Below the pieces are notes generated by a model that saw only the letters and a list, made by a program, of their open reading frames with translations, ran no database searches and had not been told where the DNA came from. Shown here piece after piece: positions 15,820 through 49,215 of a DNA stretch of 64,000 nucleotides (its first letter is position 1; every line of letters begins with the position of its first letter). A program made the translations under genes and the position numbers. The stretch covers positions 1,364,001-1,428,000 of the forward strand of contig NZ_CP071796.1 of the NCBI RefSeq assembly GCF_017498525.1. The letters are read 5' to 3'. Origin of the DNA: Ottowia testudinis (GTDB taxonomy: Bacteria; Pseudomonadota; Gammaproteobacteria; Burkholderiales; Burkholderiaceae_C).

Positions 15820-15956
15820 TGACCGGCACAAATAAAGCCCGTCGACGATGGCGCCGCTAAGTCGTTGATTCTTCGAACTCTTAGCGCAATCAAAAAGTCC
15901 GTCGGAAATTTCCGAATCGACTGAGCCGATTCGACAGCAACAAACAAGGTCCGTCG
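15820..15956 (+). repeat. Transposon left end with three TnsB-type repeats
   Basis: L1 at 15828-15844 (ACAAATAAAGCCCGTCG, 16 of 17 to consensus), L2 at 15888-15904 (AATCAAAAAGTCCGTCG, 13 of 17) and L3 at 15940-15956 (ACAAACAAGGTCCGTCG, 15 of 17). All point the same way. The GTCCGTCG half is the most constant. Spacing is 60 and 52 bp, a spread-out left end as in Tn7. The Tn7 repeat also contains a GACAATAAAG block (family knowledge). Confidence 0.85.
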
Positions 15957-16185
15957 GATCTGTTGTCGAACCGCTGCGCTGACCAGATCACAGGCTAGCG
16001 TTTGCTCTTCAGGACTTGGGACACTGCACATTGAGGGCGTTTATGTTTTGGCGATCACAACCCTAACAGTGCAAAGACTCAAGAGGATTAGCCGACAAGG
16101 CAGTCCAACGCTGGTCGGGTTGACGCGGCTACTCGGGCAACCCTAAACGCCACTCAGTGCACATCTGCTGCACTTGGCGCATCAC

Positions 16186-17553
16186 CTAAGCCGAGGGTTT
16201 TCTGCCGAGTGACTCTCGGATGTCCCTCCCCGCTTGCAGCAGTTGCTCCAAAGAACGTGGTTTTGATCGACGCAAAGCTACGACCTTTCCACGTGGTCTT
16301 GCCATAGGTTGCGCGGCCCGTTCGATCGCGTCGACAGCCGCCTTTTCTTCTCCAGTCATTGCGCCTTGGACGCTGGCACGCGCCACAGCGGCTGTTCGCG
16401 CTTCGTGCAGCTGTGCTTGGTATGCCGCGCTGCGGGTCACAATTTCCGGACCATCGAAGGGACACCTCAAGTCTCGCCGCAGTTCGCCGCCTTGCCCGGC
16501 ATGCGCGATAAGCAGATCGACGTCCCTCCGTGGAGCCGAGAACATCGCCGAATGAAACGCCTGCAAGACGAAACACCACGTCACCCTCGTTGCACCAGAC
16601 TGCCGCGCGACGCGGTAGGCGTGCACAAGTAGCTTGACCAGCTCGCGTTTCAGTCCGGCGCAAAGATTCCAGAGTTCGATGCTGCGCTCCTCGATCTTGA
16701 ACTCGTAGGCTTCATCGAGAACTACGCCAAACTCCCTCATCAGGCCCTGCCAGTCCTCAGACATTGGCGAATCTGGCAGCACAACAATTGGATGGCCTAA
16801 CAGGCGTTGAACCGCCTCTGAGGGGCGAGCGAGCAGCTTCCAGATCAACGAATAGTTCGCGATGTAGAACCAAGGCACTCCGACGTCTGCTACGGCAAGC
16901 AAAGTTCTCGTAATCAGTGTGCTCGCAGTATCTGACTGCGCCATGAACTGAGTCTCGTCGACACCGAGGAGACAGCATCCCACGACTCGCTGCCATTCGG
17001 CGCATCTTGCGGAAATCTCGCTTCTTCTCACCTTTGCGTGCCCCGAAGCGATCTCCGGATTGGCCAGAGGTCTAAGGACCTCCAGCACACTTGCCTGCTG
17101 ACCAATTTTGCAGTCTGCATACTCGATCAGAGGCACTCGGGGATGCGCCTCATTCACGACCACATGGTCACGGCCAGTCAGTACTCGCGAAATGCTAAGA
17201 CGAATCCTCGACTTCCCGACGCCAGCGAGACCCGTCAGCAAGATCGGCACGTTGTCCTCACGCACGGCCACTCCGCTGTAGGCGGCGCGGAGGACGGCTG
17301 TCGGATCTGCGTACACGAGTTGCGCGTGCGCAAGCGCCCTTTCTAGACACCGTCGGATGATCGACTCGGCCTGGTCGGTGACCAAGTTGACGTACTGCAT
17401 TCCAAGCAGGAGCCGATCACAGGCCACTTCAATTTCCATTGCTTCAAGGCCGCGTACTACCTCGCCGTGCGTCTCAGCTCGACGCCTGATGACGCCTGGC
17501 TCCAGGGCTTCGGAATAACGTCCTGCCCAAATGGCCGGAGGGCACTTCATCAT
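16186..17553 (-). CDS. tnsC: TnsC/TniB-like AAA+ ATPase
   Basis: AAA+ ATPase of 455 residues that links the target selector (TniQ/TnsD) to the TnsAB transposase. Walker A is ILLTGLAGVGKSR (residues 104-116) and Walker B is CCLLGVDETQF (about 193-203). Downstream pieces LLAVADVGVPWFYIANYSL and LLGHPIVVLPDSPMSEDW match the sensor region of TniB/TnsC proteins. It overlaps the tnsB stop by 4 bp (17550-17553) and is the last gene of the tnsABC operon, transcribed toward the left tip 220 bp away. Confidence 0.88.
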   Translation of the reverse strand: MMKCPPAIWAGRYSEALEPGVIRRRAETHGEVVRGLEAMEIEVACDRLLLGMQYVNLVTDQAESIIRRCLERALAHAQLVYADPTAVLRAAYSGVAVREDNVPILLTGLAGVGKSRIRLSISRVLTGRDHVVVNEAHPRVPLIEYADCKIGQQASVLEVLRPLANPEIASGHAKVRRSEISARCAEWQRVVGCCLLGVDETQFMAQSDTASTLITRTLLAVADVGVPWFYIANYSLIWKLLARPSEAVQRLLGHPIVVLPDSPMSEDWQGLMREFGVVLDEAYEFKIEERSIELWNLCAGLKRELVKLLVHAYRVARQSGATRVTWCFVLQAFHSAMFSAPRRDVDLLIAHAGQGGELRRDLRCPFDGPEIVTRSAAYQAQLHEARTAAVARASVQGAMTGEEKAAVDAIERAAQPMARPRGKVVALRRSKPRSLEQLLQAGRDIRESLGRKPSA

Positions 17554-19634
17554 GCAGCCCTCTTTCCGGCGGTGATGCGCGCTGCCTCTGTTGCCTCGCG
17601 CCTGGCTGCCAGGTTTCCACGCTTAGGTCGGCCAGCAGTCCGCTGGCCGGATTTCCACTTCTCTCCAGTCTGAGCCTCGTAGTCCCGTGCGATATCCAGG
17701 CTCGCCGCCCGAGAATGACTCTGGAACCGACGCGCGGAGGCTTGCGTGTGTTGGTGGTACTGAACTGCTTCCGCCAGTGACATGTAGTTCACCTCTTCAT
17801 CGACGGGTATGGGGTAGCGGACGTCGAGCTCAATCAAGCGCCCACCCCAGTCAAACCAGATGTGACGGGTACAGGCGTTCAGAACGTAGACCTTCACATC
17901 TAACACTCGGGAACCGCCAACGGATTCCATCGCCGATTGGAAATCCGGCGATCTGGAGTAATAGTTGCGCCCTGCCAACTCAACTCCTTCGCGCGTCAGC
18001 TTCGCTGGCAAGTTCTCAAGGCAGGCGCGTACGGCATCCGCGAAGTCAACTTGGATGGCATCGTTTCGCCCGACAGATTCCAATGCCTCCCACACGCCAT
18101 TCGGGCTTTGTCTGCTCACAAGATGTTCAAGGCTCGGATCAATGCGGCTGCCCACGTCCGTACGCTCATTGAACTCCAGAACCCGGAAGATCTCACGACG
18201 AGCAAGCTGGGCTACCGTCAGCGTCGACCGGACAAACGAAGGAGGCTCGTCGTCTTTGAGCGTCTTCGGGTTCGACGTCTCGATGAGCCCCTTGCTGACC
18301 CCTGAGTACGCGGGGGTCATCTCGCGCACCACGGGCAACAGGCTGGCATCACGTGGCAACGCACTTGACGTGGCACCTGGCCCTCTATCCGTGATCTGCG
18401 TGGGCGAGAGGCCTTTCCCAGGTGATTTGACTTTCAGTCCGAACAGTCGTCCAAACTCCTGGAGGCCGATCGACTCACAGAAGGTTGCCATTCGGTATGC
18501 CGCGCCGGTTTCACTGCCCTGGCTGAATCCGATTCCAGTCAATCTGCCAGAAGCGGTGTCCCGCTTCGTGACCACAACCAAGGGAGGCAAGTCGCTGCCT
18601 TCCACGTAGCCTCGCGGAAGGTCGTGCACTCGATATGCGTCGGCTTCCACGTTCTGCATGAGGTTCCACGTTGACGCGCTGAACGTCCCCTTCACGGGGT
18701 CGATCGTTTTTCTCGCTCTATTGCGGCCAATTCGAGCAGTGCGGACAGCGGCCGGTTCGAAGTGGCGCTTGACGTGATAGAAGTAGGCGCCTTCCTGAGG
18801 GAAAGGATCACCGTTCGGGTGGTAGATCTCGAGTTGCCGCCTCTGACCAACGGAGATTTCTCTCGCCTTGCAGCCGAAGTGCTTGCGCATCGCCGAGACA
18901 TAGACTTCTGGCTCTGTGCGACCAAGTCTTTGTTCGGCTATGTAAGACGCGATGATCTTGTCGTGCATCTCCTTTGTGGTGTTGTATCCATGCGCGCTTC
19001 CGCGGTAGCCTGGTGCCCCTCGTTTGACCTCGGACACGGTTGTCAGACGATCCCACCGACCGATCTTGTGGATAGGGTAGAAAAGCGCGTTTCGGTTTCG
19101 CCCGAACACTAGATAGGTGAAGAACCACAGCCGCACCCGCGTTTCGTTTTGCTTTGGGGTCAGTTCCCGAGCGTGCTGATTGATCCGAGTCTCGAGGTCA
19201 GGGCTATCAATGAGCTCCTCGGCACGCTGCACGAGTGGATTGATGACGAGCAGCTTTTGGTCTATGCGGTCGGCGTGAGTCCTGGCAGGATCCCGTCGCT
19301 CAGAATCGACGCTATCGAGGTCAAGACCAGATAGTTGCTCTAGCCACGGCGGCAACGCTCGGCGCTGCGCCGGGATGATGTGTCGACCCAGAGCGTCTTC
19401 GAAAACGTCTCTTGGCATCCGCTCGATGATCGGATGTGGGTCAGGTGTGATAGTCCGTTTAGGTTTTTTCGCGTTCTTGTAGACGACATCTTTCGCTGGT
19501 TGCTGCACGAAGCGAACAAGCGTGACGACCTCGGTTACGGGACTGTTTCGCAACAGGTAATAGGTGTGCCCCGCAAACAGGTTCTTGTAGCCTTGTGGTG
19601 CTGCCAGCGGGCTTCCGGTGCCGATTCTGATCAT
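17550..19634 (-). CDS. tnsB: TnsB-like DDE transposase
   Basis: Transposase of 694 residues that binds the end repeats and joins the 3' ends to target DNA. The RNase H-fold triad is visible as D332 (NVEADAYRVHD), D416 (QITDRGPG) and E452 (SKGLIETSNPK). The spacing of D416 to E452 is exactly 35 residues, as in the rve/DDE superfamily. The N-terminal ~280 residues hold helical DNA-binding regions. The Lys/Arg-rich C-terminus (GRPKRGNLAARREATEAARI) may contact TnsC. It overlaps tnsA and tnsC by 4 bp each. Confidence 0.9.
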   Translation of the reverse strand: MIRIGTGSPLAAPQGYKNLFAGHTYYLLRNSPVTEVVTLVRFVQQPAKDVVYKNAKKPKRTITPDPHPIIERMPRDVFEDALGRHIIPAQRRALPPWLEQLSGLDLDSVDSERRDPARTHADRIDQKLLVINPLVQRAEELIDSPDLETRINQHARELTPKQNETRVRLWFFTYLVFGRNRNALFYPIHKIGRWDRLTTVSEVKRGAPGYRGSAHGYNTTKEMHDKIIASYIAEQRLGRTEPEVYVSAMRKHFGCKAREISVGQRRQLEIYHPNGDPFPQEGAYFYHVKRHFEPAAVRTARIGRNRARKTIDPVKGTFSASTWNLMQNVEADAYRVHDLPRGYVEGSDLPPLVVVTKRDTASGRLTGIGFSQGSETGAAYRMATFCESIGLQEFGRLFGLKVKSPGKGLSPTQITDRGPGATSSALPRDASLLPVVREMTPAYSGVSKGLIETSNPKTLKDDEPPSFVRSTLTVAQLARREIFRVLEFNERTDVGSRIDPSLEHLVSRQSPNGVWEALESVGRNDAIQVDFADAVRACLENLPAKLTREGVELAGRNYYSRSPDFQSAMESVGGSRVLDVKVYVLNACTRHIWFDWGGRLIELDVRYPIPVDEEVNYMSLAEAVQYHQHTQASARRFQSHSRAASLDIARDYEAQTGEKWKSGQRTAGRPKRGNLAARREATEAARITAGKRAA

Positions 19635-20617
19635 GTCCAGCGCCTGAACCAGGGTTCGAACATTTCAACGGCGTCCTGCGTTTCTGACCGCATCGGACGA
19701 TCGATGAACAGATGGCTCTCGATCAGATCCAAACGTAACTTCCTGAAGAAAACAGCTTGGTGAAAAACGATCTTCTGCTCATACCACGGAAGACCGTGGG
19801 AGAGTTCTGTTGCGCAGATCACGTCGAGCGGGGAAGCTTCCCGCTCAAGCCCTTCATTGAACGCATCGATCACTAAAGCGACGGCGTCTGGACTCAGCGT
19901 GCTACGGCGTTTCTGCCAACCTATCAATTGAAATAGGTTTGCAATGAGGATGTGTGGCAACTCGTCCGCTGCGACCTCAACTGTTCGGATCTGATGGTCC
20001 GAGTACAGAACGCGCTCTGTTTCGTGTCGCGCTTTCTCCTTGATCTGCGCTCGGATCGGATCTGACCTCATGGTCACACCGACCTGCGGCGCCTCAAACT
20101 CTGATCGGGTCGACTTGACGTTGATGTTGACGCAGTATGGGCCGCCTTCGTCGGTGAGAAATGCAAGGAAGTCACCGATCCAGCATCCAGGGGCTTGGTC
20201 GGGCGGCGCGCCATCCTGGCCCAGAACGTGTACCACTGGGTGAAACTTCAGATAACCTAGGTCGTGAGTGATCTGCAGGGTCCCTCTCGTCGGGGGCAGG
20301 TGCAGGCCGGCGGCCAATGGATGACCGTGAAGCGGGTGCAGTCCAGGCAGGAACGGCAACATCCGTTGCTCGTGCAATTCGAACAGCGTGGGACAGCAGT
20401 AGACGATGACTGCCAATGCCGAGCGCTCGGCCCTCGACAGCACGCACACATCGCGCCCCAGCTTATCGACCCAAACGGCCGCCGGCCTGCTGCTGGATGG
20501 CGCTTCCTCGCGCGTCGGCTTGATCGACGGTTCGTAGCCCGGCCCGAACCTGGGTGGATCTTGGCGCCGCAGGATCTCAGCGAGCCTTGCTTCAGTCAGT
20601 CTGTATTGCAACCCCAT
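19631..20617 (-). CDS. tnsA: TnsA-like endonuclease subunit
   Basis: Protein of 328 residues, first gene of tnsABC. In Tn7, TnsA cuts the 5' strands so that transposition is cut-and-paste. A restriction-endonuclease-like core is visible: Glu in LFELHEQRMLPFL, Asp in CWIGDFLAFLTDEGG, and Asn-Val-Lys in CVNINVKSTRSE. The last is where Tn7 TnsA has Gln-x-Lys, so Asn replaces Gln. The C-terminal part ERVLYSDHQIRTVEV, then LPHILIANLFQLIGW, matches the TnsA C-domain. If the substitution abolished cutting, transposition would become replicative. Confidence 0.78.
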   Translation of the reverse strand: MGLQYRLTEARLAEILRRQDPPRFGPGYEPSIKPTREEAPSSSRPAAVWVDKLGRDVCVLSRAERSALAVIVYCCPTLFELHEQRMLPFLPGLHPLHGHPLAAGLHLPPTRGTLQITHDLGYLKFHPVVHVLGQDGAPPDQAPGCWIGDFLAFLTDEGGPYCVNINVKSTRSEFEAPQVGVTMRSDPIRAQIKEKARHETERVLYSDHQIRTVEVAADELPHILIANLFQLIGWQKRRSTLSPDAVALVIDAFNEGLEREASPLDVICATELSHGLPWYEQKIVFHQAVFFRKLRLDLIESHLFIDRPMRSETQDAVEMFEPWFRRWT

Positions 20618-21582: not shown

Positions 21583-22203
21583 ATGAGTTCATCTGCGCGA
21601 GATTCGAGGGAGCTGCATCAGGTCTTCTCTCTGTTGGACGATGCGCTGTTGGAGACACTTCGCAATAGTCCAGACGAAGCCTCGGTCGCGCGAGTTCGTC
21701 GCCGGAGAACCATGGGAAATGGATCGGTAGCGCTCGCGTCTTGCTGCGTGCTCGCCACAGCCACCCCGTTCGTATCACGATCGCCTATTGGCACTGTGCT
21801 GCTTTTTGTTGCAACCGTCCTGCTGCTTCTCATTGGTGGATGGGCAATCGACAGTGCGACAGGAGAAGAAATTCGCGCCCATCGAATTGGCATTGTGGAT
21901 CCGTTGGCCCATGCACTTCATGATCCGAGAATCATGTGGCCCGGTATTCGCCGCCGTAAGCACTTGGGGTTCGCTCTGCTGTCGTCGTCCGGGTTCTGTG
22001 CATGCACTGCATGGGCGCTCTTCGGAGGCCAGCGATCTATCGACACCACGATGTGGGCTTGCTTCGCGTGTACGCTCGCTGCTCTCGGCGCTTTGCAGTT
22101 GAATCGGGCTTTCAAGCAGCTGCTCGCTACCAAGGCGATGGCTGCCACTGCTCTGCGGCGTGCTGCCGCCAGGAACTCGCGGCATCTATGGCGCGTGAAG
22201 TAG
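21583..22203 (+). CDS. Membrane protein of unknown function
   Basis: Protein of 206 residues with four likely membrane segments in two hairpins: VALASCCVLATATPFV and GTVLLFVATVLLLLIGGWA, then GFALLSSSGFCACTAWALF and TTMWACFACTLAALGALQL. The hairpins are joined by a cytoplasmic loop. No family recognised. It sits between the XRE regulator and the first tniQ gene (7-bp gap), inside the transposition-control block, where a membrane protein is unexpected. Confidence 0.6.
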   Translation: MSSSARDSRELHQVFSLLDDALLETLRNSPDEASVARVRRRRTMGNGSVALASCCVLATATPFVSRSPIGTVLLFVATVLLLLIGGWAIDSATGEEIRAHRIGIVDPLAHALHDPRIMWPGIRRRKHLGFALLSSSGFCACTAWALFGGQRSIDTTMWACFACTLAALGALQLNRAFKQLLATKAMAATALRRAAARNSRHLWRVK

Positions 22204-22210: not shown

Positions 22211-23860
22211 GTGACGGACTCTTCGCAACGTGAGCTGCGGCACGTCAAGTTCGGTCTTCCTCAGAGATGGCTGCCGGATGAAACGCTTTTTAGCCTCTGC
22301 AGCCGCTACCACATGGCGAGCGGCCATCAGCTTGCCTCCACCACGTGCAAGGCGCTGTTCGGGCACCCCACTCAAGGCTCCGGGCACGACTTCGCTGCAC
22401 GCCTCAACCACTTTCTCGCTGTCGCCGGCTCAAACCTCGGATCGGCAGATGAGATCGTGGAGGCCCGGACTGTCCTTCCAATCTATCTAGTATTCGCCAG
22501 CAAGGAACTTGCGGATGCTGCACGCCGCGCTTCGGCTGAGGGCTCTGCCGGAGCACTGAAGTTTCGCCTCGGATTGCTAACTAGCCGATTCCGAGCCAAT
22601 CATCCCTTGAAGGCTTGCCCCACCTGCATGATCCAAGACGCGTCCGATCATGCGACTGCTTACTGGCATCGATCGCATCAGCTCCCTGGGGTTTGGGTAT
22701 GTCGGCGGCACAAACGCTGGTTGGTTGCGTCGGACCTCAAAGCAACTGGCATCCGCAGGTTCCACTGGATGTTGCCCTCGTCCGCGCAATTTACTCTCGC
22801 CCACCAGTGCGACCCAAGTAGGGAAGTATTCGCTTTGGCTGACTTGGCGATCGCCCTAGCTTCTCGAACTAGGCTCAACTTGAATCCAAGGGTGCTGTCT
22901 TTGACGTACCGTGAAGCGCTCGCAGAGCATGGCTTGCTTACCCCCTCCGGTAGCCGGCTACGACATGGCGCGGCCGGCCTGCGTTATCACGAATTCTTAA
23001 AGGGCCTTCCCCTGATCGATCAGTTGGGAGGTATACCCACTTCGGTGGAGGGCACTTCCGCTGAGATTGCCCGCTTGATTGGACCAAAGCGGTCGGGAAT
23101 ACACCCCCTGCGACACTTGATGCTGGCGACGTGGCTATTCGACAGCGCTGAAGGGTTTCTAGCGCGTTGCGACCAAGTCGAGTTTCAGAGCGACTTTTCC
23201 CAGCTCAGACAAGGCCCAGCGCTCTCAGTTTCACCCGCACTGGGTCCAGATCCAAGGAAGGATCAACTGGCATCACTTCTTCAAGCAGGATTAACAGTCA
23301 CACGGGCATCACGGGAACTCGGCGTGGATACGAACACGGGCATGGCATGGGCTGCAGAGCAGGGGTTTACGATCCGGCGAAGGCCGAAGGTCCTGACTTC
23401 TGAAGTTCGCAAGAAGGTGATTCGGTTACTCAAGCGCGGTGTCCACAAGGCTGAAGCCGCCACGGCAGGCAACGTCTCTGTTGAAACGATCACCAGCCTA
23501 CTGCGCAGCGAGGTTGGGCTGCATCAAGCCTGGAAGGACGCACAATTCGAGGGAAACCGCCGACGGAACAGACGGCGCTGGGTGCGCTGGGTAAGTGCCA
23601 ACCCGCACTCCGGGGTCAAAGCCGCGAGGCTCGCCGAGCCCGCTGTTTATGCATGGCTGTACCGCAATGATCGCACCTGGCTGGCAGCGCAGACTGTTTC
23701 CATGGAGCGAGTTACCCGCAACCCAAGAATCAAGGTTGACTGGGATGCTCGTGATAGGCAACTATCAAACGAGGTGAAGCGATTAGCTCTCGAACTGCAC
23801 GAATCCGACTTAGAAGGGCGGATCAAGCTTTGGAGTTCCCCCCATCTCACGGACGGTTGA
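22211..23860 (+). CDS. tniQ: TniQ/TnsD-family target-site selector 1, C-terminus replaced by IS3
   Basis: Sequence-specific target-selection protein. The N-terminal TniQ domain has GLPQRWLPDETLFSLCSRYH and a zinc finger C136-x2-C139 ... C164-x2-H167 (ACPTCMIQ, HQLPGVWVCRRH). The long C-terminal region with HTH-like stretches (GLTVTRASRELGVDTNTG, HKAEAATAGNVSVETITSLL) resembles TnsD and would read the attachment DNA. GTG start at 22211. An IS3 element cuts the gene at 23830, so the last ~10 residues are IS-encoded; the native 41-residue tail is at 25137-25259. Whether the truncated protein works is unknown. Confidence 0.85.
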   Translation: MTDSSQRELRHVKFGLPQRWLPDETLFSLCSRYHMASGHQLASTTCKALFGHPTQGSGHDFAARLNHFLAVAGSNLGSADEIVEARTVLPIYLVFASKELADAARRASAEGSAGALKFRLGLLTSRFRANHPLKACPTCMIQDASDHATAYWHRSHQLPGVWVCRRHKRWLVASDLKATGIRRFHWMLPSSAQFTLAHQCDPSREVFALADLAIALASRTRLNLNPRVLSLTYREALAEHGLLTPSGSRLRHGAAGLRYHEFLKGLPLIDQLGGIPTSVEGTSAEIARLIGPKRSGIHPLRHLMLATWLFDSAEGFLARCDQVEFQSDFSQLRQGPALSVSPALGPDPRKDQLASLLQAGLTVTRASRELGVDTNTGMAWAAEQGFTIRRRPKVLTSEVRKKVIRLLKRGVHKAEAATAGNVSVETITSLLRSEVGLHQAWKDAQFEGNRRRNRRRWVRWVSANPHSGVKAARLAEPAVYAWLYRNDRTWLAAQTVSMERVTRNPRIKVDWDARDRQLSNEVKRLALELHESDLEGRIKLWSSPHLTDG

Positions 23861-35518: not shown

Positions 35519-35959
35519 GATGAGCCGTAACTGCACGCATCGGCGACTTTGTTTGGTATCTGTGGCGCCTCGTATACGCTGGCAGTAAGGCGCTGGAGGT
35601 GCGTACAGGCGCGCTCTGGGCTAGGGGCTGGGTTGGCGCGATGGCGACGGCAATGTACGTCCCACGCGATGGCGGGGCTGATCAGCGCCAAGTCACGGAC
35701 GTTGCTAGCAAGGTGAGAGTGGATGCGCAACCAGAGCTCCCCCGGCTTCTGAGCGGCGGCTTCTTGGCCAAGCAGGCCCTTATTCCAGCCGCTTATTGCG
35801 CGTGAATTCCTCATGGAGAGGACTTCGCCATGCTCAACGGCCGCTCCCGAGCCCAGTGAGACATATAGATGCCCAGTCCCGCCTGCGAAGCTGACGGACA
35901 GACACAATGTCAGCGGCGCGTTGCTTTACTCTCAGTGAAAGCAGATACCTGTAGGGCAA
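35519..35959. other. 441-bp gap between the two defence-like operons
   Basis: Carries the upstream promoter part of the methylase operon (-35 side) near 35520-35540. Open frames on both strands (35599-35805 plus, 35476-35907 minus) have no recognisable motif or ribosome site, so I call no gene. Confidence 0.4.
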
Positions 35960-38809: not shown

Positions 38810-38847
38810 GGCGTTCAGGGCTACGTGGCGCCGGACTGGCTGCAAGA

Positions 38848-39937: not shown

Positions 39938-41407
39938 TCATCGAGGAAGCTTGCTGCCCTCTGCCGGAGCGCGATCGCCAGCCAAGTGGCCACCAACGCG
40001 CGGAATTCGTATCGCAAAGGCATTGCCTGTGGCGCGCGGCGTGACAGATACATCGCCAGCATGTGCCTGGACGATCGCCTGCGTGATGGCCAAGCCCAGA
40101 CCCGCGCCCTCACCGCTGTTGCGCACATGGCTGCGGTCTGCCTGCGCCCGATAGAAGCGATCGAAAAGATGGGGCAAAGCATCCGTGCTGATGGGAGTCC
40201 CCTCGTTGAACACGGTCACACAGGCGCAGTCGTCTTTCGTGCTTATGTTGACTTCAAGCTTGCCGCCGATGGGCGTGTGCTGAAGAGCGTTGGACAACAG
40301 GTTGCCGATGGCCCGGCGAAGCATCAACCGGTCGCCCATCACGGTCGCGGCGCCTTTTTGGGTCAGGCTCACATCGGCTTCCAGCGCCAGAGCCTCATAG
40401 AACTCGAATAGCGCCTGGACCTCGGTGCGCAACTCGACCCGCTCGGGTGACGGCAGCAACAAGCCATGGTCGCTCTTGGCCAGAAACAACATGTCGCTCA
40501 CGGTGCGGCTGAGACGTTCCAGTTCCTCGGCGTTGGATGCCAGCGTTTCCCGGTAATCGGCTGTCGATCTCGGCTGGCTCAGCGTCACCTGGGTCTGCGT
40601 CATGAGATTCGACAACGGCGTGCGCAACTCGTGCGCGATGTCGCTGGAATAGGCGCGCAGACGCTCGAACGATTCCTGCAGCCGCGCCAGCATCGCGTTG
40701 AGTGCGCTGGCCATCTCCGCCAACTCCACAGGGCCTTCGTCGACGGGCATGCGCGCGTCGAGTTGCCCGGCACCGATGCGTCCAGCCTGTGCGCGCATCA
40801 CCGCGAGCGGTTTCAACCCGCTGCGCACCGCCCATGCCCCCAGAAGGGCACTGCCCAGCGCTGCGAGGAGCACATAGCCAATCAGCGCACGGCGAAAACT
40901 GGTGACGAAGGCCTCATGGTGATGGATGTCGAGCGCCATCGCCACAGTCACGGGCACCGCCCCGTCCACCGGCAGCGGCATCAGCATGGCGCTGCCGCGC
41001 CACATGTGATCGCCCTCGCGCCAGGTGAGCAATGGCGCAGGGTGCGTTTGGGCCGGGTTGGCCAGGAGGTCGGCCGGGATGTGCGCCTCGGGCGCCTGCA
41101 TGAACAAAGCTTGCCCTGACGCTTCTTGCACCCGGACAACCAGGTCGCTGTGGCTGCCGAAGGCGCGTTCCAGCTCGCCCGGCAGCGCTTGCAGCGCCTC
41201 GGCGTTGTCAACGCGCAACAGCAGACTGCGCGCCTGCTGCAGGTGGCTGTGCAGGATGCCGCGATCCTGTGCCTCGAAATGCTCATCGAGCGCCAGCAGT
41301 GTCACCCCGCCCAGCAGCGCCAGTGCCAGGCTGGCCACCAGCGCGAAGAGCAGCGTCAACCGCGTGGTCAGCGAAGCGCGCCGGCGTATTGCCGCGGTGT
41401 GGCTCAT
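39938..41407 (-). CDS. copS: Copper-sensing histidine kinase CopS/CusS-like
   Basis: Inner-membrane sensor kinase of 489 residues. Two membrane segments ([20 protein letters not shown] and [20 protein letters not shown]) enclose a ~140-residue periplasmic sensor. A HAMP domain follows, then the phospho-acceptor His in [17 protein letters not shown] and the ATPase boxes [11 protein letters not shown] and [16 protein letters not shown]. The GTG/ATG overlap with copR (4 bp) shows coupling. It is expected to phosphorylate CopR when periplasmic copper rises. Confidence 0.9.
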
Positions 41408-42105
41408 GGCTGGCGCGGCGTCTCATCCAGCACGTAGCCCATGCCCCGCACGGTCTGGATCAGCTTGGGCTCGAACGGGTCATCCACCTTGGCGCGCAGA
41501 CGGCGTACGGCGACCTCGACGACGTTGGTGTCGCTGTCGAAGTTCATGTCCCATACCTGCGAGGCGATCAGCGAGCGTGGCAGCACCTCACCGCGGCGGC
41601 GCAAGAGCAGCTCCAGCAGGGCGAACTCCTTGGCCGTCAGATCGATGCGCTGGCCGGCGCGCATGGCGCGGCGGCGCATCAGGTCGAGCGAGAGATCGGC
41701 CGCTTCCAGCGTGGTCGGTTCGGCGGCGCCGGGGCCGGCCGCCGTACGGCCACGCCGCAACAGGGTGCGCACGCGCGCCAGAAGTTCCGCGAAGGCAAAG
41801 GGTTTGACCAGGTAGTCGTCGGCGCCCAGCTCCAGGCCCTTGACGCGGTCTTCGACCTGATCGCGCGCCGTCAGGAACAGCACGGGAATCTCGCGCCCAG
41901 CCTGACGCAATGCGCCCAGCACCTGCCAGCCGTCCAGGCCCGGCAGCATGACATCGAGCACGATCAGGTCCGGCGCCTCGGTCAGCGCCAGGTGCAGGCC
42001 ATCCGGGCCATTGCGCGCCAGCAGGACGCTGTAGCCCGCTTCCTGCAGGCCCTGGCGCAGGTAGTCGCCGGTCTTGACCTCGTCTTCGACGATCAGCAGT
42101 TTCAT
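41404..42105 (-). CDS. copR: Copper response regulator CopR/CusR-like
   Basis: OmpR-family regulator of 233 residues starting at [19 protein letters not shown]. The receiver has the phospho-Asp in [13 protein letters not shown] and Lys in [10 protein letters not shown]. The winged helix has [20 protein letters not shown] and [19 protein letters not shown], then [11 protein letters not shown]. It is divergent from copA with a perfect palindrome between them that is its likely binding site. Confidence 0.92.
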
Positions 42106-42144
42106 CGGTAGCAAGTGTGCCTTGCCGCGCAGCGTCCTCCATTC

Positions 42145-42164
42145 AGATTACAAAAAAGTAATCT
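42145..42164. promoter_or_regulatory. Cop box (CopR operator)
   Basis: AGATTAC-AAAAAA-GTAATCT is a perfect 7-bp inverted repeat in the copR-copA gap. It resembles the ATTAC/GTAAT operators of CopR/CusR regulators and sits where it can control both directions. Confidence 0.7.
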
Positions 42165-42207
42165 CCGCGTCACCCTTGGGTCGGGGGCCGCGCGCCAGAC
42201 TGCCGGC

Positions 42208-44004
42208 ATGCTGATTCCTTCACTTCTGCCGGCCGCAGGCTTGCTGCCACGTCGACGCTTCCTGCAAGCCATGACGGCCTTGGGCTCCACTGCGGCGCTC
42301 CCCGCCTGGGCTCAGGCCTTGCCCGCCGCGCGCACCGGAACGCCACCAGAGTTGCGCGGACCGCACTTCGAGCTGACCATGGACTACACGTCGGTCGATT
42401 TCGACGGCCGCCGCGGCATCGCCACCACCCTCAACGGCAGCTTGCCCGGCCCCACGCTGCGCATGCGCGAGGGCGAAACAGTCACGATCCGCGTCACCAA
42501 CCGTCTGCGCGAGACGGCCTCCATCCACTGGCATGGCGTCATCCTGCCGTTCCAAATGGACGGCGTGCCCGGCATCAGCTTTGCCGGAATCGCGCCGGGC
42601 GAGACCTTCACCTACCGTTTCACGCTGGAGCAGAGTGGCACCTACTGGTATCACTCGCACTCCGGCATGCAGGAGCTGACCGGCATTTACGGCGCGCTCA
42701 TTGTTGAGCCGCGCGGCGGCGAGACGATCCGCGCCGCGCGCGATCAGGTGGTGCTGCTGTCGGACTGGACCGGCGACGACCCGATGCGCGCCCTGGCCAA
42801 GCTCAAGGCCGAGGCGCATGTGTACAACCAGAACAACCCGACGCTGGTGAAGCTGCTGCGCGATGCGCGCCAGCATGGCATGAAGGCTGCGCTGGCCGAA
42901 CGCGACATGTGGAACGCCATGCGCATGAGCCCGACCGACCTCGCCGACCTGTCCTCGCGCGTGCTCTCCTACTTGATCAATGGCCAGGCGTCGGGTGCCA
43001 ACTGGACTGCCTTGTTCAAGCCGGGCGAACGCGTGCGCCTGCGCTGCATCAACGGTGCGGGAAACACCTTCTATGACTTGCGTATCCCGGGCCTCAAGCT
43101 CACCGTGGTGCAGCAGGACGGCCAGAACGTCGAGCCGGTGACCGTGGATGAATTCCGCATCGGACCAGGTCAGACCTGTGACGTGGTCGTGCAACCCCGG
43201 GAAGATGCCTACACCTTGTTCGCGCAATCGATGGACCGCACCGGCGCGGCCATCGGGACGCTGGCGGTGCGTGAGGGCCTGAAGGCGCCGGTGCCCGTGC
43301 TGGATGCGGTGCAATGGCTGAGCATGGCCGACATGATGGGTGGCATGGACCATGGCGCGCACGGTGGTGAAGGCGACGCCAGTGCAGCGATGATGAACCA
43401 CGGGTCGATGGATCACTCGTCCATGGGACACGGGGCCATGAACCACGGCCTCGCAGACGGCAACCGGCCGGCGCGCGCCAGTGCCCAGGTGCGCCACGCC
43501 CGCACGGAATGGGGTCCAGGCAGCGACATGCGCGTCGACATGCCGCGCGCCAACCTCGACGATCCGGGCGTGGGTCTGCGCAACAACGGCCGCCGCGTAC
43601 TCACGCTGGCAGACCTGCACACCATCGGTGGTCCGATGGACCCACGCGGCGCCGAGCGCGAGATCGAGCTGCACCTGACCGGCAACATGGAGCGCTACAC
43701 CTGGTCGATCGACGGTCAACGCTTTGCCGACAGCAAGCCTGTCCATTTCAAGTATGGCGAGCGCCTGCGCGTCATTCTGCACAACGACACCATGATGACG
43801 CACCCTATGCACCTGCATGGCATGTGGCAAGAACTTGAATCGCCCGAGGGGAAATTCTTGGCCCGGCTGCACACCATCCCCGTGCAGCCGGCGCAGCGCC
43901 TGAGCTTTCTCGTTACGGCCGATGCGCTGGGACGCTGGGTCTGGCACTGCCACCTGATGTTCCACATGGACCTGGGCATGTTCCGGGAGGTGGTGGTGTC
44001 ATGA
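42208..44004 (+). CDS. copA: Multicopper oxidase CopA, Tat-exported
   Basis: Periplasmic copper-resistance oxidase of 598 residues. The Tat signal is LLPRRRFLQAMTALGSTAAL. Copper ligands appear in the usual order: IHWHGVIL, YWYHSHSGMQ, HPMHLHGMWQ and WHCHLMFHMDLGM. A Met/His-rich loop (residues ~395-430, repeated MDHSSMGHGAMNHG) binds extra copper. It oxidises Cu(I) in the periplasm. ATG 42208 is chosen at the Tat start. copB overlaps its stop (ATGA). Confidence 0.93.
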   Translation: MLIPSLLPAAGLLPRRRFLQAMTALGSTAALPAWAQALPAARTGTPPELRGPHFELTMDYTSVDFDGRRGIATTLNGSLPGPTLRMREGETVTIRVTNRLRETASIHWHGVILPFQMDGVPGISFAGIAPGETFTYRFTLEQSGTYWYHSHSGMQELTGIYGALIVEPRGGETIRAARDQVVLLSDWTGDDPMRALAKLKAEAHVYNQNNPTLVKLLRDARQHGMKAALAERDMWNAMRMSPTDLADLSSRVLSYLINGQASGANWTALFKPGERVRLRCINGAGNTFYDLRIPGLKLTVVQQDGQNVEPVTVDEFRIGPGQTCDVVVQPREDAYTLFAQSMDRTGAAIGTLAVREGLKAPVPVLDAVQWLSMADMMGGMDHGAHGGEGDASAAMMNHGSMDHSSMGHGAMNHGLADGNRPARASAQVRHARTEWGPGSDMRVDMPRANLDDPGVGLRNNGRRVLTLADLHTIGGPMDPRGAEREIELHLTGNMERYTWSIDGQRFADSKPVHFKYGERLRVILHNDTMMTHPMHLHGMWQELESPEGKFLARLHTIPVQPAQRLSFLVTADALGRWVWHCHLMFHMDLGMFREVVVS

Positions 44005-45050
44005 ATAAGTTCGAGTTGAATCCACCGTCCGTTGGCGGGATCAGGCCGCTTCACGCTTTCGCACTGCTAGCGTTGGCGTTCGGATCTTCCGTCGCCGCTG
44101 CGCAAGGCATGACGCACGACCATGGGGCGACGCACGGTGCAACACCGGCAGCGCCTACGCCTTCGCCTGCAACACCACCTGCGGCAGGCGCACATGACCA
44201 TGGTGCCACGCACAGAGCGCCGCCTGCCGCCGCCGCGGCATCTCCATCACCACAAGCGCCAGACGCTCCCGTTCCACAAGCCGCAATGGACCATGGTGAC
44301 ATGCAAGGTGGAAGCCCACCTGCGGACGCACGCGATCCGGACGCCTACGCCAATGGCCATGAACGCGGCACTGGCGAGCATGTGCCGCCGGGCGTGACCA
44401 AGCTGCACCTGGGTGATGAACACAGCTTTGCCTCGTTCAAGCTGAATCGGCTGGAACGCGTGTTTCCCCGTCGCGGTGGCAACCACACCGCCTATGAAGG
44501 CCAGTTGAAATTCGGCGGTGACTTCAACCACGCCGTGCTGAAGGCCGAGGGCGAGGTCGCTGGCGGCAAGTTGCATGAATCACGTACCGAACTGCTGTGG
44601 GGCCACGCCATCGCGGCCTACTGGGACTCGCAACTCGGCTTGCGCCACGACGGCGGCGAAGGACCCAGCCGCACCTGGCTGGCGTTTGGCGTCGAAGGCA
44701 CGGCGCCGTACTGGATTCATACCCGCGTCACCGCCTACCTGGGCCAAAGTGGCCGTACCGCTTTGCGGCTGGAGGCCGAGTACGACGCGTACCTGACCCA
44801 GAAGCTGGTGCTGCAACCCAAGACCGAATGGCATTTCTACAGCAAGAACGACCCTGAGCAAGGCATTGGCAAAGGCCTGTCCAGCGCCAGTCTCGGCCTG
44901 CGCCTGCGCTACGAGTTCACGCCGCAGATCTCGCCCTACATCGGTGTGGAGTGGCAGCGCAGCTTTGGCCGCACGGCTGATTTCATGCGCGACGCGGGTG
45001 GTCGCGCCTCGCAGACCCGCTGGGTGGCGGGCCTGAGTTTCTGGTTCTGA
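44001..45050 (+). CDS. copB: Outer-membrane copper-resistance protein CopB
   Basis: Outer-membrane beta-barrel protein of 349 residues. A signal peptide (LHAFALLALAFGSSVAAAQG) and a His/Pro/Ala-rich metal-binding region with repeated THDHGATHG and MDHGDM units come first. The CopB domain then contains FNHAVLKAEGEVAGGKLHES, WDSQLGLRHDGGEGPSRTWL, IGVEWQRSFGRTADF and a C-terminal GLSFWF. It is translationally coupled to copA. Confidence 0.92.
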   Translation: MNKFELNPPSVGGIRPLHAFALLALAFGSSVAAAQGMTHDHGATHGATPAAPTPSPATPPAAGAHDHGATHRAPPAAAAASPSPQAPDAPVPQAAMDHGDMQGGSPPADARDPDAYANGHERGTGEHVPPGVTKLHLGDEHSFASFKLNRLERVFPRRGGNHTAYEGQLKFGGDFNHAVLKAEGEVAGGKLHESRTELLWGHAIAAYWDSQLGLRHDGGEGPSRTWLAFGVEGTAPYWIHTRVTAYLGQSGRTALRLEAEYDAYLTQKLVLQPKTEWHFYSKNDPEQGIGKGLSSASLGLRLRYEFTPQISPYIGVEWQRSFGRTADFMRDAGGRASQTRWVAGLSFWF

Positions 45051-45072
45051 CACAACTTTCCAAGGAGTCCCG

Positions 45073-45546
45073 ATGACCAAATCCCTGATGACCGTTCTGC
45101 TCGCCATGGCAATGCCCTTGATGGCGCAGGCAGCCGGCTCTCATGACCACAGCCACGGCCCAGCCGTGAACAGCGCCGTTGGCCAACCTGGCGATGCCGC
45201 CAAAGTCACGCGCACCATCGAGGTGCTGCTGAATGACGACATGCGATTCAAGCCCGAAACCATAGAGGTGAAACAGGGCGAGACCGTCCGGTTCTTCGTC
45301 AAGAACCAGGGCGCCGTTCAGCACGAAATGGTGCTCGGCACGCTCGCCGAACTGAAAGAGCATGCCGAGATGATGCGCAAGATGCCCGACATGAAGCACA
45401 GTGACCCGAACGCGGTCAACTTGCAGCCAGGCCAGCGCGGCGGCATGGTATGGCAATTCACCCAAACCGGCACAGTGGATTTCGCATGCACCGTACCCGG
45501 CCACATGGAAGCTGGCATGGTCGGCAAGGTCATCGTCTCGCCGTGA
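45073..45546 (+). CDS. Cupredoxin-like copper protein
   Basis: Periplasmic protein of 157 residues with a signal peptide (SLMTVLLAMAMPLMAQA). It is a plastocyanin-type beta sandwich: TIEVKQGETVRFFVKNQGA, a His ligand in VQHEMVLG, and Cys-His-Met ligands in FACTVPGHMEAGMVG. A His-rich segment (GSHDHSHG) follows the signal. It probably carries copper or electrons between the periplasmic members of this operon. AAGGAG precedes the start. Confidence 0.88.
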   Translation: MTKSLMTVLLAMAMPLMAQAAGSHDHSHGPAVNSAVGQPGDAAKVTRTIEVLLNDDMRFKPETIEVKQGETVRFFVKNQGAVQHEMVLGTLAELKEHAEMMRKMPDMKHSDPNAVNLQPGQRGGMVWQFTQTGTVDFACTVPGHMEAGMVGKVIVSP

Positions 45547-45574
45547 CCGGCCCCAGAAGGAAAGGAGTGTGAAC

Positions 45575-46066
45575 ATGACCACGACCCTGACGCTCTCGCG
45601 ACGCGCCGCACTGCACTGGGCAGTTGCAAGCGCTGGCGCCGTGATGGCGCCGGCGCTGATGGCGCAGACCAAAGCAGCACTGACCACCGGCATGGAAATC
45701 TGGAAAGACGCCAGTTGCGGTTGCTGCGGCGACTGGATCAAGCACATGGAGGCCAACGGCTTCAAGGTCGATGCCATCCACGACACCGGCAACAACGCCG
45801 CGCGGGCGCGCCTGGGACTGGCGGCCAAGTACGGCTCATGCCACACGGCGCTGATCGGTAGCTATGTGGTGGAAGGACATGTCCCCGCGGCCGATGTGAA
45901 GCGCCTGTTGCGGGAGAAACCCCAGGCCCTGGGCATTGCCGTTCCCGGCATGCCGATCGGCTCGCCTGGCATGGATGGGCCCGTCTACGGAGGTCGCCGT
46001 GACAAGTACGACACGCTGCTGGTGAAGCGCGATGGCACGAGTCACGTGTTTCAGAGCCACAGTTGA
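45575..46066 (+). CDS. DUF411-family metal-binding protein
   Basis: Periplasmic protein of 163 residues. The signal (LSRRAALHWAVASAGAVMAP) carries a double Arg. The mature part begins with MEIWKDASCGCCGDWIKHME, the C-x-C-C site of DUF411 proteins found in copper and silver operons, followed by GSCHTALIGSYVVEGHVPA and GMPIGSPGMD. It probably binds or hands over copper. AAAGGAG lies seven bases before ATG 45575. Confidence 0.88.
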   Translation: MTTTLTLSRRAALHWAVASAGAVMAPALMAQTKAALTTGMEIWKDASCGCCGDWIKHMEANGFKVDAIHDTGNNAARARLGLAAKYGSCHTALIGSYVVEGHVPAADVKRLLREKPQALGIAVPGMPIGSPGMDGPVYGGRRDKYDTLLVKRDGTSHVFQSHS

Positions 46067-46159
46067 TCGGCTGCTTCTTGCGTCGAGCAGCGCTTTCCGA
46101 ATCCGGGCGGCCAAGCTTGTTGGGGTCACCGCGTGCGCATGGGGTCAAGGGCCTCTGGC

Positions 46160-46645
46160 ATGACACGCCAGCGGTGGATGGTGGTGACACTGTTGAGCCT
46201 GCTGCTGATCGCAACGCTGCTCCTGTGGCAACGGCAGCGGCCCGTGGATCGCGCAGCGCCATTGCTTCGACCCGGCGACGATACGCTGGTGATCAGAGGG
46301 GCGGCGATCTACTCGCGGCACTGTGCCAGTTGCCATGGTGCAAGCGGTGAAGGTCAACCAAACTGGCGTCAACGTGGGCCCGACGGCTTGCTTCCAGCCC
46401 CGCCACATGACTCCAGCGGCCACACTTGGCACCACCCCGACGCGCAGTTGTTTGCCATCACCAAGCTGGGGCTGCCGCGCGTCATCAACCAGCCGAACTA
46501 CCAGACTGCCATGCCCGTTTACGAAGGCGTTCTGAGCGATGACGACATCATCGCCGTGCTGTCGTGGATCAAGGCGCAGTGGCCGCCTGAAGTGCGTGCG
46601 CACCAGGACCAGATCAACGCGCAGGCGGCGCCTGCAACCCGCTGA
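46160..46645 (+). CDS. c-type cytochrome, membrane-anchored
   Basis: Protein of 161 residues with an N-terminal membrane anchor (WMVVTLLSLLLIATLLLW) and one haem site CASCH in SRHCASCHGASGEGQ. The axial Met is probably in YQTAMPVYEGVLSDDDI. Such cytochromes accompany multicopper oxidases in copper-resistance clusters. ATG 46160 is preferred; GTG 46133 and ATG 46139 are in frame upstream. Confidence 0.85.
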   Translation: MTRQRWMVVTLLSLLLIATLLLWQRQRPVDRAAPLLRPGDDTLVIRGAAIYSRHCASCHGASGEGQPNWRQRGPDGLLPAPPHDSSGHTWHHPDAQLFAITKLGLPRVINQPNYQTAMPVYEGVLSDDDIIAVLSWIKAQWPPEVRAHQDQINAQAAPATR

Positions 46646-46706
46646 AAGCGTGGCGTGCCCGTTGACGGCATGCGTGCATGTGGCGTAAGCCACAAGGAGT
46701 TTCGTC

Positions 46707-48926
46707 ATGAATGAACACCCGCATGACCATGGTGGCCCTCATCACCACGCCACCGATCAGGGAGCACATGCCGATGTCGATGGCGGGACTTCTTCCAGCC
46801 TGAATTCCCCACCGGCCGCTTCATCGGCAGTCGCGGGCACCATCTACACCTGCCCTATGCATCCCGAGATTCGGCAGGATCACTCGGGCAACTGCCCCAT
46901 CTGCGGCATGTCGCTGGAACCGGTGATGCCGACGTTCGACGAAGACGACAGCGAGCTGCGCGACTTCCGGCGCCGCTTCTGGTGGACGCTGCCCTTGACC
47001 GTCGTGGTCACCGTGCTGGCGATGTTCGGACACCGGCTGGGCTGGTTCGACATGGGCACGCAGTCGTGGGTCGAACTGGTGCTGTCGCTGCCGGTGGTGC
47101 TGTGGGCGGGCTGGCCATTCTTCGTGCGCTGCTGGCAGTCCATCGTCAGCCGCAACCCCAACATGTGGACGCTGATCGGCCTGGGCACCGGCGCGGCCTT
47201 CGGCTACAGCGTGGTAGCCACCGTCGCGCCACAGGTGTTCCCGGACTCCTTCGTGTCGATGGGACGCGTGGCGGTCTACTTCGAGGCGGCAGTCGTCATC
47301 ATTTCTCTCACGCTGTTGGGCCAGGTATTGGAATTGAAGGCCCGATCCCAGACTTCCGCTGCCATCAAGTCCTTGCTTGGCCTGGCGCCCAAGACGGCGC
47401 GGCGCATCGCCCCAGACGGCAGCGAGGCTGACGTGCCGCTCGACCATGTGCATGTCGGTGACTTGCTGCGCGTGCGCCCCGGCGAAAAAGTGCCCGTGGA
47501 TGGCGTGGTCGTAGAGGGCAGCAGTTCAGTCGATGAATCCATGCTCACGGGTGAGCCACTGCCGGTAGGCAAGCGCGTGGGCGACGGCCTGATCGGGGCC
47601 ACGCTCAACACCAGCGGCGCGCTGGTAATGCGTTCGGAGAAAGTGGGTTCTGCCACCGTGCTGTCCCAGATCGTGCAGATGGTGGCTCAAGCGCAGCGCT
47701 CGAAGGCACCGTTGCAGCGGCTAGCGGACGTGGTGGCCGGAAAGTTCGTTATCGTCGTCGTGCTGATCGCCATTGCCACCTTCTTTGCCTGGGGCCTTTG
47801 GGGGCCGGAGCCGAGCTGGGTCTACGCCTTGATCAACGCCGTGGCCGTGCTCATCATCGCTTGCCCCTGCGCGCTGGGCCTGGCCACGCCGATGTCGGTG
47901 ATGGTGGCCACCGGTCGAGCGGCGACGCAAGGCGTGCTGTTTCGCGATGCCGCGGCCATCGAGAAGCTGCGAGAGGTCGATACCCTGATCGTCGACAAGA
48001 CCGGTACGCTGACCGAAGGGCGACCTGCGTTCGACCGTGCCGTGGGCGTGGGCGCGTATGACGAAGCCGAAGTGCTCCGGCTGGCGGCCAGTCTGGATCA
48101 GGGCAGCGAGCATCCGCTGGCCGATGCCATCGTGGCTGCGGCGCGTGAGCGCAAGCTGGCACTGGACACGCCGGACGAGTTTGATTCCGGCACCGGCATC
48201 GGCGTGCGGGGTACCGTCGCCGGCCAGCGCCTGGCGCTGGGCAATACGACGCTGATGGACCAGGAGGGCGTGGATGTGACTCCGGTCGCTGCGCAGGCCG
48301 AAGCACTGCGCAGCGAAGGCGCGAGCGTGATTCACCTTGCCGTCAACGGTCAACTGGCGGGCCTGTTGGCGGTGACCGATCCGGTCAAGGCCAGCACCCC
48401 CGAAGCCCTGAACAAGCTGCACGCAGCCGGCCTGCGGATCATCATGGCCACCGGTGACGGCGTCACCACGGCCAGGGCCGTAGCCGCCCGTCTGGGCATC
48501 GACGAGGTCCATGGCGAAGTCAAGCCGGCCGACAAGCTGGCGCTGGTGGAACAGTTGCAGCAGCAAGGCCGTGTCGTGGCGATGGCAGGCGATGGCATCA
48601 ACGACGCTCCAGCGCTGGCCCGCGCTGACGTGGGCATCGCGATGGGCACCGGCACCGATGTGGCCATGACCAGCGCCCAGCTCACCCTGGTGAAGGGTGA
48701 TCTGCGCGGCATCGCCATGGCGCGCAACATCTCGCAGGACACCGTGCGCAACATGCACCAGAACCTGTGGTTCGCGTTCCTCTACAACGGCATCGGTGTG
48801 CCCATTGCGGCGGGCTTGCTGTATCCGTGGACCGACTGGTTGTTGTCACCGATGATCGCCGCACTGGCCATGAGCTTGAGTTCGGCTTCTGTGATCTTCA
48901 ATGCCTTGCGGTTGCGCGTTCGGTGA
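46707..48926 (+). CDS. Cu(I)-exporting P1B-type ATPase
   Basis: Inner-membrane copper pump of 739 residues. A His-rich N-terminus ([14 protein letters not shown]) is followed by a heavy-metal-binding YTCPMHPEI ... [10 protein letters not shown] domain rather than an HMA domain. Core motifs: SMLTGEPLP, the intramembrane CPC in [12 protein letters not shown], the phosphorylation site [12 protein letters not shown] in EHPLADAI, and [10 protein letters not shown]. The YN and MSxSS pairs in helices 7 and 8 ([18 protein letters not shown]) define the Cu(I) subgroup. The N-terminal domain is that of CopF/CueA-like pumps. Last gene of the copper operon. Confidence 0.93.
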
Positions 48927-49130
48927 GCCTGCTGCCGAGTGATCGCGATCGACCAGAAGCGGGCATTTACCAATTAACCCTGACGGTCTGCTAATGGCCG
49001 TTGCCGACGTTGCTTGCTGCCGACTGACCGACGGCAATCGCTGCGCTGCGGTCATTCGGGCGCAGTTGTACGAGGCTCGTGCCCAAGCAGGATCGCGTCT
49101 CAACTTTAGAGCGACCTGCAGGTGCGCTGA
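48927..49130. other. Transposon sequence between copper operon and right end
   Basis: About 200 bp with no gene. It contains GACCGACGGCAATCGCTGCG and other GC-rich stretches but no clear terminator or repeat of the end type. Confidence 0.4.
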
Positions 49131-49215
49131 TTTCAGAGTTTATTTTTACGATCAACCTTCCTAAGGTTCTCGACGGACTTTATTTGTGCCCGACGGACTT
49201 TATTTGTCGGAGTCA
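49131..49215 (-). repeat. Transposon right end with two exact TnsB-type repeats
   Basis: R1 at 49191-49207 and R2 at 49171-49187 are both exact copies of ACAAATAAAGTCCGTCG (minus strand), 20 bp apart. A degenerate third copy may lie at 49131-49147 (AAAAATAAACTCTG core). The tip TGACTCCG ends at 49215. Closely packed right-end repeats against spread-out left-end ones is the Tn7 pattern. Confidence 0.85.

What the first reader, a model, noticed from the sequence alone, without database searches (positions are those of the whole stretch)
15820..49215. 33.4-kb Tn7-like transposon splitting an SbmA/BacA-like ABC transporter gene
Two halves of one transporter gene lie 33.4 kb apart on the same strand and rejoin in frame (GAG ACG CAA | ATC GCC) when the insert and one TTGC are removed. 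The insert has inverted TGAC tips, 17-bp end repeats, tnsABC and two tniQ genes. Known Tn7-like elements mostly use sites downstream of glmS or in comM, yhiN, guaC and similar genes; this transporter gene would be a new kind of site.
Basis: partly seen in the sequence, partly recalled or inferred. Interest (0 to 1): 0.92.

Follow-up and report, generated by a model that had tools for sequence, protein, structure and literature searches.

The report
Tn7-like transposon with 4-bp target duplication
A 33-kb jumping element carrying copper-resistance genes has landed inside, and broken, a membrane transporter gene; its relatives usually sit beside the glmS gene, and the family appears to copy four bases of target DNA on insertion instead of the five thought typical of all Tn7 relatives.

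Summary
A 33,396-bp element (15820-49215, TGAC...GTCA) splits a 642-codon ABC transporter gene at codon 78/79, with TTGC on both sides. A congener has the uninterrupted gene, gap-free over 240 bp across the junction.

It is a Tn7-type element, but the transporter is not supported as a new attachment site. 67 of 399 family genomes (this one included) have the gene, and no second insertion was seen. The closest relatives sit in classical attTn7 beside glmS. Of 21 clear glmS-side ends in the clade, 12 lie 15-24 bp past a glmS tail and 4, this one included, show no such tail. The window's TnsD keeps 30 of 31 C-terminal columns conserved in glmS-inserted TnsDs, and no such end lies at the host's own glmS. 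I read it as a one-off landing by a second route, perhaps through the second TniQ protein.

The surprise is the target duplication: exactly 4 bp in 9 of 9 elements with both tips resolved; [quoted passage not shown]

The parts
15820..49215 (.). whole element, tips TGAC...GTCA
   Evidence: tips and duplication; congener empty site
15816..15819 (.). TTGC, target-site duplication, copy 1
49216..49219 (.). TTGC, target-site duplication, copy 2
15820..15957 (+). left (glmS-distal type) end: repeats at 15828-15845, 15888-15905, 15940-15957
49170..49215 (-). right (glmS-proximal type) end: two repeats 20 bp apart (49190-49207, 49170-49187)
   Evidence: same layout as the glmS-side ends of relatives
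16186..17553 (-). TnsC-like AAA+ ATPase, 455 aa
   Evidence: profile to VchTnsC 2.8e-6 and Tn7 TnsC 4.8e-6; G111, K114 and E200 invariant, D199 nearly so, in 12 sequences
17550..19634 (-). TnsB-like DDE transposase, 694 aa; D332, D416, E452 invariant in 16 sequences
   Evidence: profile to Tn7 TnsB 7pik 2.7e-14
19631..20617 (-). TnsA-like endonuclease, 328 aa; D149 and K168 invariant in 12 sequences
   Evidence: profile to Tn7 TnsA 1f1z 1.2e-7
21583..22203 (+). 206-aa protein of unknown function, also beside tnsD in G621 and G079
22211..23860 (+). TnsD, 549 aa: TniQ domain plus TnsD C-terminal domain; predicted glmS (attTn7) selector
   Evidence: PF15978 6.6e-42, PF06527 3.3e-11; Tn7 TnsD 1.6e-11; 30/31 C-terminal columns
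23847..24761 (-). IS3-type transposase ORF (integrase core) between the two tniQ genes
   Evidence: PF00665 4.5e-28, PF13276 8.8e-20; the name IS3/OrfB is my reading
25726..27042 (+). TniQ2, 438 aa: second TniQ protein, candidate second target selector
   Evidence: PF06527 4.9e-9; family profile to Tn7 TnsD 9.6e-10; AF2 model matches TnsD(1-318)
39938..48926 (.). copper cargo: CusS-type kinase, response regulator, multicopper oxidase, CopB, cupredoxin, cytochrome c, heavy-metal P-type ATPase
32403..38845 (-). cargo: 840-aa DNA methylase-like protein, two small ORFs, 961-aa AAA/SEC-C protein
49216..49449 (-). 5' part of the split transporter gene (codons 1-78)
14121..15819 (-). 3' part of the split transporter gene (codons 79-642, stop, and one TTGC copy)
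   Evidence: ABC_membrane_2 4.2e-50, ABC_tran 3.9e-20, SbmA_BacA 5.3e-11

Best explanation
This is a structurally complete element (tnsA, B, C, D and tniQ2 frames open, both ends present) of a divergent Tn7-like family that usually homes to attTn7 downstream of glmS. By analogy with Tn7, TnsD binds the glmS tail, TnsC bridges, and TnsA plus TnsB cut the element out and paste it a short way past the glmS stop, the end with two repeats 20 bp apart facing glmS. Shown from sequence: in this family the joint duplicates 4 bp, not 5. Here the element went elsewhere: it inserted at codon 78/79 of an SbmA/BacA-like ABC transporter gene with no glmS-like sequence beside it, breaking that gene, while the host's glmS has no such element. 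Inferred: it used a second, non-TnsD route; my first candidate is TniQ2, doing the job that TnsE does in Tn7. Low-specificity TnsABC activity is possible.
For: Links of TnsA, TnsB, TnsC, TnsD and TniQ2 to Tn7 proteins. Close relatives at glmS: tip 24 bp (G502), 22 bp (G621), 21 bp (G079) past the stop; of 21 clear glmS-side ends, 12 at a glmS tail, 2 stacked behind another element at glmS, 1 abutting another end, 2 at glmS-like stretches, 4 with no tail; 2 more ends of unclear type are at glmS tails. Window flank P = 0.51 against 10,000 random points of the window, while a pseudo-site (G603:C1) exceeds all of them. Window TnsD keeps 30/31 columns against 13/31 for G415. TSD 4 bp in 9 of 9. One copy in the genome, none at glmS. 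Two relatives on Pseudomonas plasmids sit by sequences that do not score as glmS-like (P = 0.06 and 0.93).
Against: Nothing ties TniQ2 to off-site insertion: G257 and G262, which are at glmS, carry a TniQ2 homologue, as do G572, G565, G543 and G525, at or near glmS, and G621 and G079 show none in the stretches read. G621 also shows no tnsC and G079 no tnsABC there, so these two may be defective. No tns or tniQ gene lay in the stretches read inside the other off-site elements. TnsD specificity is inferred from conservation only, and elements away from glmS (G030 28/31, CP027478 30/31) score alike. The closest relative's TnsD is missing from its MAG. Four more ends of unclear type (L161, L163, L173 minus strand, L177) lie by no glmS tail, so off-site copies may be commoner than 4 of 21.
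Confidence: 0.75

Rival explanations
1. The transporter codon is a dedicated attachment site recognised by a re-targeted TnsD.
For: Insertion is precise and the gene is widespread (67 of 399 family genomes, own included). TnsD re-targeting seems to occur in this family: G415 sits 12 bp past the stop of a gene that I read as an ammonium transporter (my reading of its translation, no family search) and has a diverged TnsD C-terminus.
Against: No recurrence in what was examined; the window TnsD keeps the glmS-type columns (30/31); 3 of 3 relatives with TnsB or TnsD at 53-57% identity are at glmS; the insertion breaks the gene instead of sitting behind it.
Confidence: 0.07
2. TnsD-directed insertion at a glmS-like pseudo-attTn7 inside the transporter gene.
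For: Such sites seem to exist in the clade: G603:C1 has a glmS-like stretch 24 bp from the tip, scoring above all 10,000 random points; G681:C1 is weaker (P = 0.004).
Against: The window flank scores like a random point (P = 0.51).
Confidence: 0.1
3. Rare, nearly random TnsABC insertion with no selector protein.
For: 4 of 21 clear glmS-side ends show no glmS-like tail, and two of the plasmid or chromosomal Pseudomonas flanks also look random.
Against: Tn7-type systems are tightly controlled by selectors (review passages); the element carries an open second tniQ gene.
Confidence: 0.25

Closest known systems
Tn7 (TnsABCDE, attTn7/glmS)
   Same: TnsA, TnsB, TnsC and TnsD homologues; end asymmetry (clustered repeats on the glmS side, spaced repeats on the other; the Tn7 layout is recalled); glmS tail used by relatives
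   Different: 4-bp instead of 5-bp duplication; TGAC tips; TnsABC too diverged for the Pfam and NCBIfam searches made; a second TniQ and no TnsE model hit among the ORFs scanned; tnsABC at the glmS-distal end; the window copy is not at glmS
Dual TniQ/TnsD Tn7-like elements (surveyed in PMC10293859, passages read)
   Same: one large TnsD with a C-terminal extension plus a second TniQ
   Different: TniQ2 is 438 aa here with its own C-terminal extension; no CRISPR-Cas model hit among the ORFs scanned
Tn6022 / comM elements
   Same: a Tn7-like element that sits inside a chromosomal gene
   Different: Tn6022 uses TnsF to target comM (passages); no recurrence was seen in this transporter

Membership tests
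Tn7-like transposon | heteromeric TnsA + TnsB transposase | tested here: met
   profiles to 1f1z 1.2e-7 and 7pik 2.7e-14; candidate catalytic residues invariant; activity not tested
Tn7-like transposon | TnsC AAA+ regulator | tested here: met
   profile to VchTnsC 2.8e-6 and Tn7 TnsC 4.8e-6
Tn7-like transposon | TniQ-family target selector | tested here: met
   PF06527 in two proteins, PF15978 in TnsD; 8glu
Tn7-like transposon | asymmetric ends with several transposase-type repeats | tested here: met
   binding not tested
[quoted passage not shown]
   exactly 4 bp in 9 of 9 elements with both tips resolved
attTn7 (glmS) homing subgroup | inserted just past the glmS stop | tested here: not met
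   the window copy is in a transporter gene and none is seen at the host's glmS; relatives meet it
attTn7 (glmS) homing subgroup | glmS-type TnsD C-terminal domain | tested here: met
   30/31 conserved columns; binding itself not tested
Tn7 sensu stricto | TnsE | tested here: inconclusive
   no TnsE model hit among the element ORFs scanned; not every ORF was scanned
CRISPR-associated transposon | cas genes or array | tested here: inconclusive
   no cas model hit among the ORFs scanned; arrays were not searched for

The most novel reading that the evidence does not exclude
A deep branch of Tn7-like elements whose TnsB joins DNA with a 4-bp stagger, breaking the supposed universal 5-bp rule, and which replaces TnsE by a second TniQ protein that sends the element to plasmids and unrelated chromosomal sites such as this transporter gene.
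Probability: 0.4. Interest if true: 0.68.

Novelty: new variant of a known kind. Interest (0 to 1): 0.55.

Why it matters
The stagger of strand transfer is built into the transpososome, and 5 bp is treated as a constant of Tn7 relatives, including those being engineered for DNA insertion. A family with open tnsABC and a 4-bp stagger gives a natural test of what sets it. Searches that demand 5-bp duplications and the usual TnsA/TnsB profiles may miss such elements. The transporter insertion itself is probably incidental.

Tried and rejected
Transporter as a recurrent attachment site: none found. G669 looked truncated, but its DNA aligns through the junction with 4 gap positions. G535's frame is short (427 aa); its DNA was not read.

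glmS-like pseudo-site at the transporter: a first model of 11 tails gave nothing convincing (best score at a gap of 16-26 bp reached by 6% of positions); a larger one (26 tails) gave P = 0.51.

TSD pairs that did not resolve and are not among the nine: G030 (right end uncertain, no match); G090 (two ends about 290 bp apart, flanks do not match); G603 and G553 (proximal and distal flanks do not match); G572 (tip unclear). The G598 pair was picked from two proximal and two distal ends, and G681 from two proximal ends. For CP087161 a 5-bp reading is possible if its two tips differ in length by one base.

Ends dropped before the site count (one search printed 41 distinct ends): 11 distal-type and 7 of unclear type with no glmS tail, four of which (L161, L163, L173 minus, L177) could be proximal. 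L182 minus was not printed because its end repeats that of L157. Two unclear ends with a glmS tail (L173 plus, L174) are quoted apart from the 21. L183 has a weakly raised tail score (P = 0.02); I keep it among the four without a tail, so 4 may be 3.

TnsD of the closest relative G502: not found in that MAG. TniQ2 versus insertion site: of 12 stretches fetched, one lay on the flank side by my error; the 11 others held no tns or tniQ gene. End pattern in IMG/VR: 0 hits.
Full report
OBSERVATION. The element runs from 15820 (TGAC) to 49215 (GTCA), with TTGC on both sides. Removing it with one TTGC restores a 642-codon frame. The intact gene in the congener G023 encodes ABC_membrane_2, SbmA_BacA and ABC_tran domains, and the window's 3' part shows the same three. 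G023 aligns over 240 of 240 columns without a gap across the junction. One search covered 80 family genomes, 46 with a match, and returned 30 loci; the 29 that are not the window all span codon 78/79. So the halves are one gene, and tips and duplication coincide with the breakpoint.

MACHINERY. The three-gene operon 16186-20617 matches no Pfam (E <= 0.001) or NCBIfam (E <= 1) model. Profiles from relatives match Tn7 TnsB at 2.7e-14, Tn7 TnsA at 1.2e-7 and Tn7 TnsC at 4.8e-6. D332, D416 and E452 of TnsB are invariant in 16 sequences, D149 and K168 of TnsA in 12; that these are the catalytic residues is my reading. TnsD (22211-23860) has TniQ and TnsD domains and matches Tn7 TnsD. TniQ2 (25726-27042) gives an AF2 model of mean pLDDT 77 whose best solved match is Tn7 TnsD residues 1-318 (E 5.6e-6), plus a helical C-terminal extension.

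WHERE RELATIVES SIT. A genome scan with a three-sequence TnsB alignment gave 10 loci. The closest is an Acidovorax MAG (TnsB 54%). What I take for the other end of its element, on another contig, lies 24 bp past the glmS stop. In 399 family genomes 16 have a TnsD at E <= 1e-50, the window's own included. The two closest others, G621 (54%) and G079 (53%), are at glmS with the same end repeats. glmS lies within the stretch read for 7 of these 15 relatives (G079, G525, G543, G565, G572, G621, and in pieces G742); three of the other eight were on short contigs. In a scan of 399 genomes of the order, 6 had a TnsB at E <= 1e-20, own included; of these G257 and G262 are at glmS. Three Pseudomonas loci are at glmS too, two copies are on Pseudomonas plasmids, and G415 is just past a gene that I read as amt.

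ENDS AS A SITE CENSUS. A 26-base end pattern with up to 3 mismatches hit 27 of 399 family genomes; the reversed control pattern shows 0 in each genome listed. With G502 added, one search printed 41 distinct ends. Of 21 with the clear glmS-side layout, 12 lie 15-24 bp past a glmS tail, 2 lie behind another element at glmS, 1 abuts another end, 2 lie by glmS-like stretches (G603:C1, G681:C1) and 4 by none (the window, G771, G603:C77, G598:C17). Two ends of unclear layout are also at glmS tails, and four of unclear layout are at no tail. Against 10,000 random points of the window (whose own composition is the only null used), the window flank has P = 0.51, G603:C1 exceeds them all, G681:C1 has P = 0.004 and G603:C77 P = 0.02.

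TnsD SPECIFICITY. Of 31 C-terminal columns conserved in at least 7 of 8 TnsDs counted as glmS-inserted (G572 among them, though its tip is unclear), the window keeps 30 and G415 13. Left out one at a time, five of the eight keep 30-31 of 33-42 columns. The unresolved G030 and G456 keep 28 and 26, the plasmid copies 26 and 30. So the measure shows a changed specificity only when it is large, and a glmS-type TnsD can sit in an element that is elsewhere. By segment the window is closest to G621 at the N-terminus (64, 63%) and less so further on (38, 41, 58, 49%), a fall also seen between G621 and G589 (57, 54, 34, 40, 51, 41%). I take this to mean that the element did not re-target its TnsD. No end of this type lies behind the host's glmS, whose stop is a few bases from the end of a convergent ORF.

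FOUR-BASE DUPLICATION. For nine elements I could name both tips: the window TTGC (+ strand), G502 GCTC, G262 GCTG, G257 ATTT, CP087161 CAGA, CP027478 GAGA, G087 GCTG, G681 GGGG, G598 GCTG. The longest shared flank is exactly 4 in 9 of 9; among 72 mismatched pairings 6 reach 4, because three elements share GCTG. Three of the nine join ends on different contigs (G502, G681, G598). In the window no fifth base is duplicated whichever way the tip is drawn: TTTGC on the left, ATTGC on the right, and the congener's empty site has the stretch once. [quoted passage not shown] PMC2918618 (passages) gives 5 bp for Tn7. I saw no report of a 4-bp Tn7-like family in the search listings, nor in the passages; a find in PMC8649781 for duplication terms gave nothing. 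These are open-access papers, mostly seen as listings, so this is not proof of absence. I ran no positive control of the method on a canonical Tn7.

MECHANISM. Shown: tips, duplication, gene content, relatives' sites, the empty site. Inferred: cut-and-paste by TnsAB with a 4-bp stagger; TnsD homing to glmS; a second route for the off-site copies. TniQ2 is my first candidate because it has a TniQ core and its own C-terminal extension and no TnsE model was hit. But G257 and G262, at glmS, carry a homologue, as do G572, G565, G543 and G525, at or near glmS, while G621 and G079 show none; G621 also shows no tnsC and G079 no tnsABC in the stretches read.

VERDICT. A real, structurally complete, divergent Tn7-like element in a probably incidental site. 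It works like a Tn7-like transposon; by the stated 5-bp criterion it is a variant, not a standard member. Not supported as a new attachment site.

Noticed in passing
L007:4880-4960 (G502 distal flank): Just beyond the distal end of the glmS-inserted relative lies a second glmS-tail-like stretch (LANSVTVE), reading away from the element; possibly a scar of an older insertion.
   Followed up: partly
L065:16463 (G415:C1 about 1844463): A relative with a diverged TnsD C-terminus sits 12 bp past the stop of a gene I read as an amt-type ammonium transporter; possible separate attachment site.
   Followed up: partly
L154:1526 (G603:C1): An element end 24 bp from a glmS-like stretch that is not the glmS tail itself; a likely natural pseudo-attTn7.
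   Followed up: partly
G087:C5:73708-75249 (L190, L160): Two facing ends only 1.5 kb apart at glmS with a 4-bp duplication; looks like a non-autonomous mini-element.
   Followed up: partly
G257, G262, G737 and G589 end arrays: Elements lie end to end, with 2-5 bases between neighbouring tips.
   Followed up: partly
window 32403-38845: Methylase-like 840-aa protein, two small ORFs and a 961-aa AAA/SEC-C protein with a weak Cap4-nuclease match; possible unnamed defence system.
   Followed up: no
window 27693-30106: Two ORFs with Xre/MbcA/ParS C-terminal domains in a row after a 197-aa ORF; unclear toxin-antitoxin-like group.
   Followed up: no
G000:C1:3718890 (L052): Own glmS ends a few bases from the end of a convergent ORF (Lrp/AsnC-like by my reading), so an attTn7 insertion would cut into that ORF.
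   Followed up: partly
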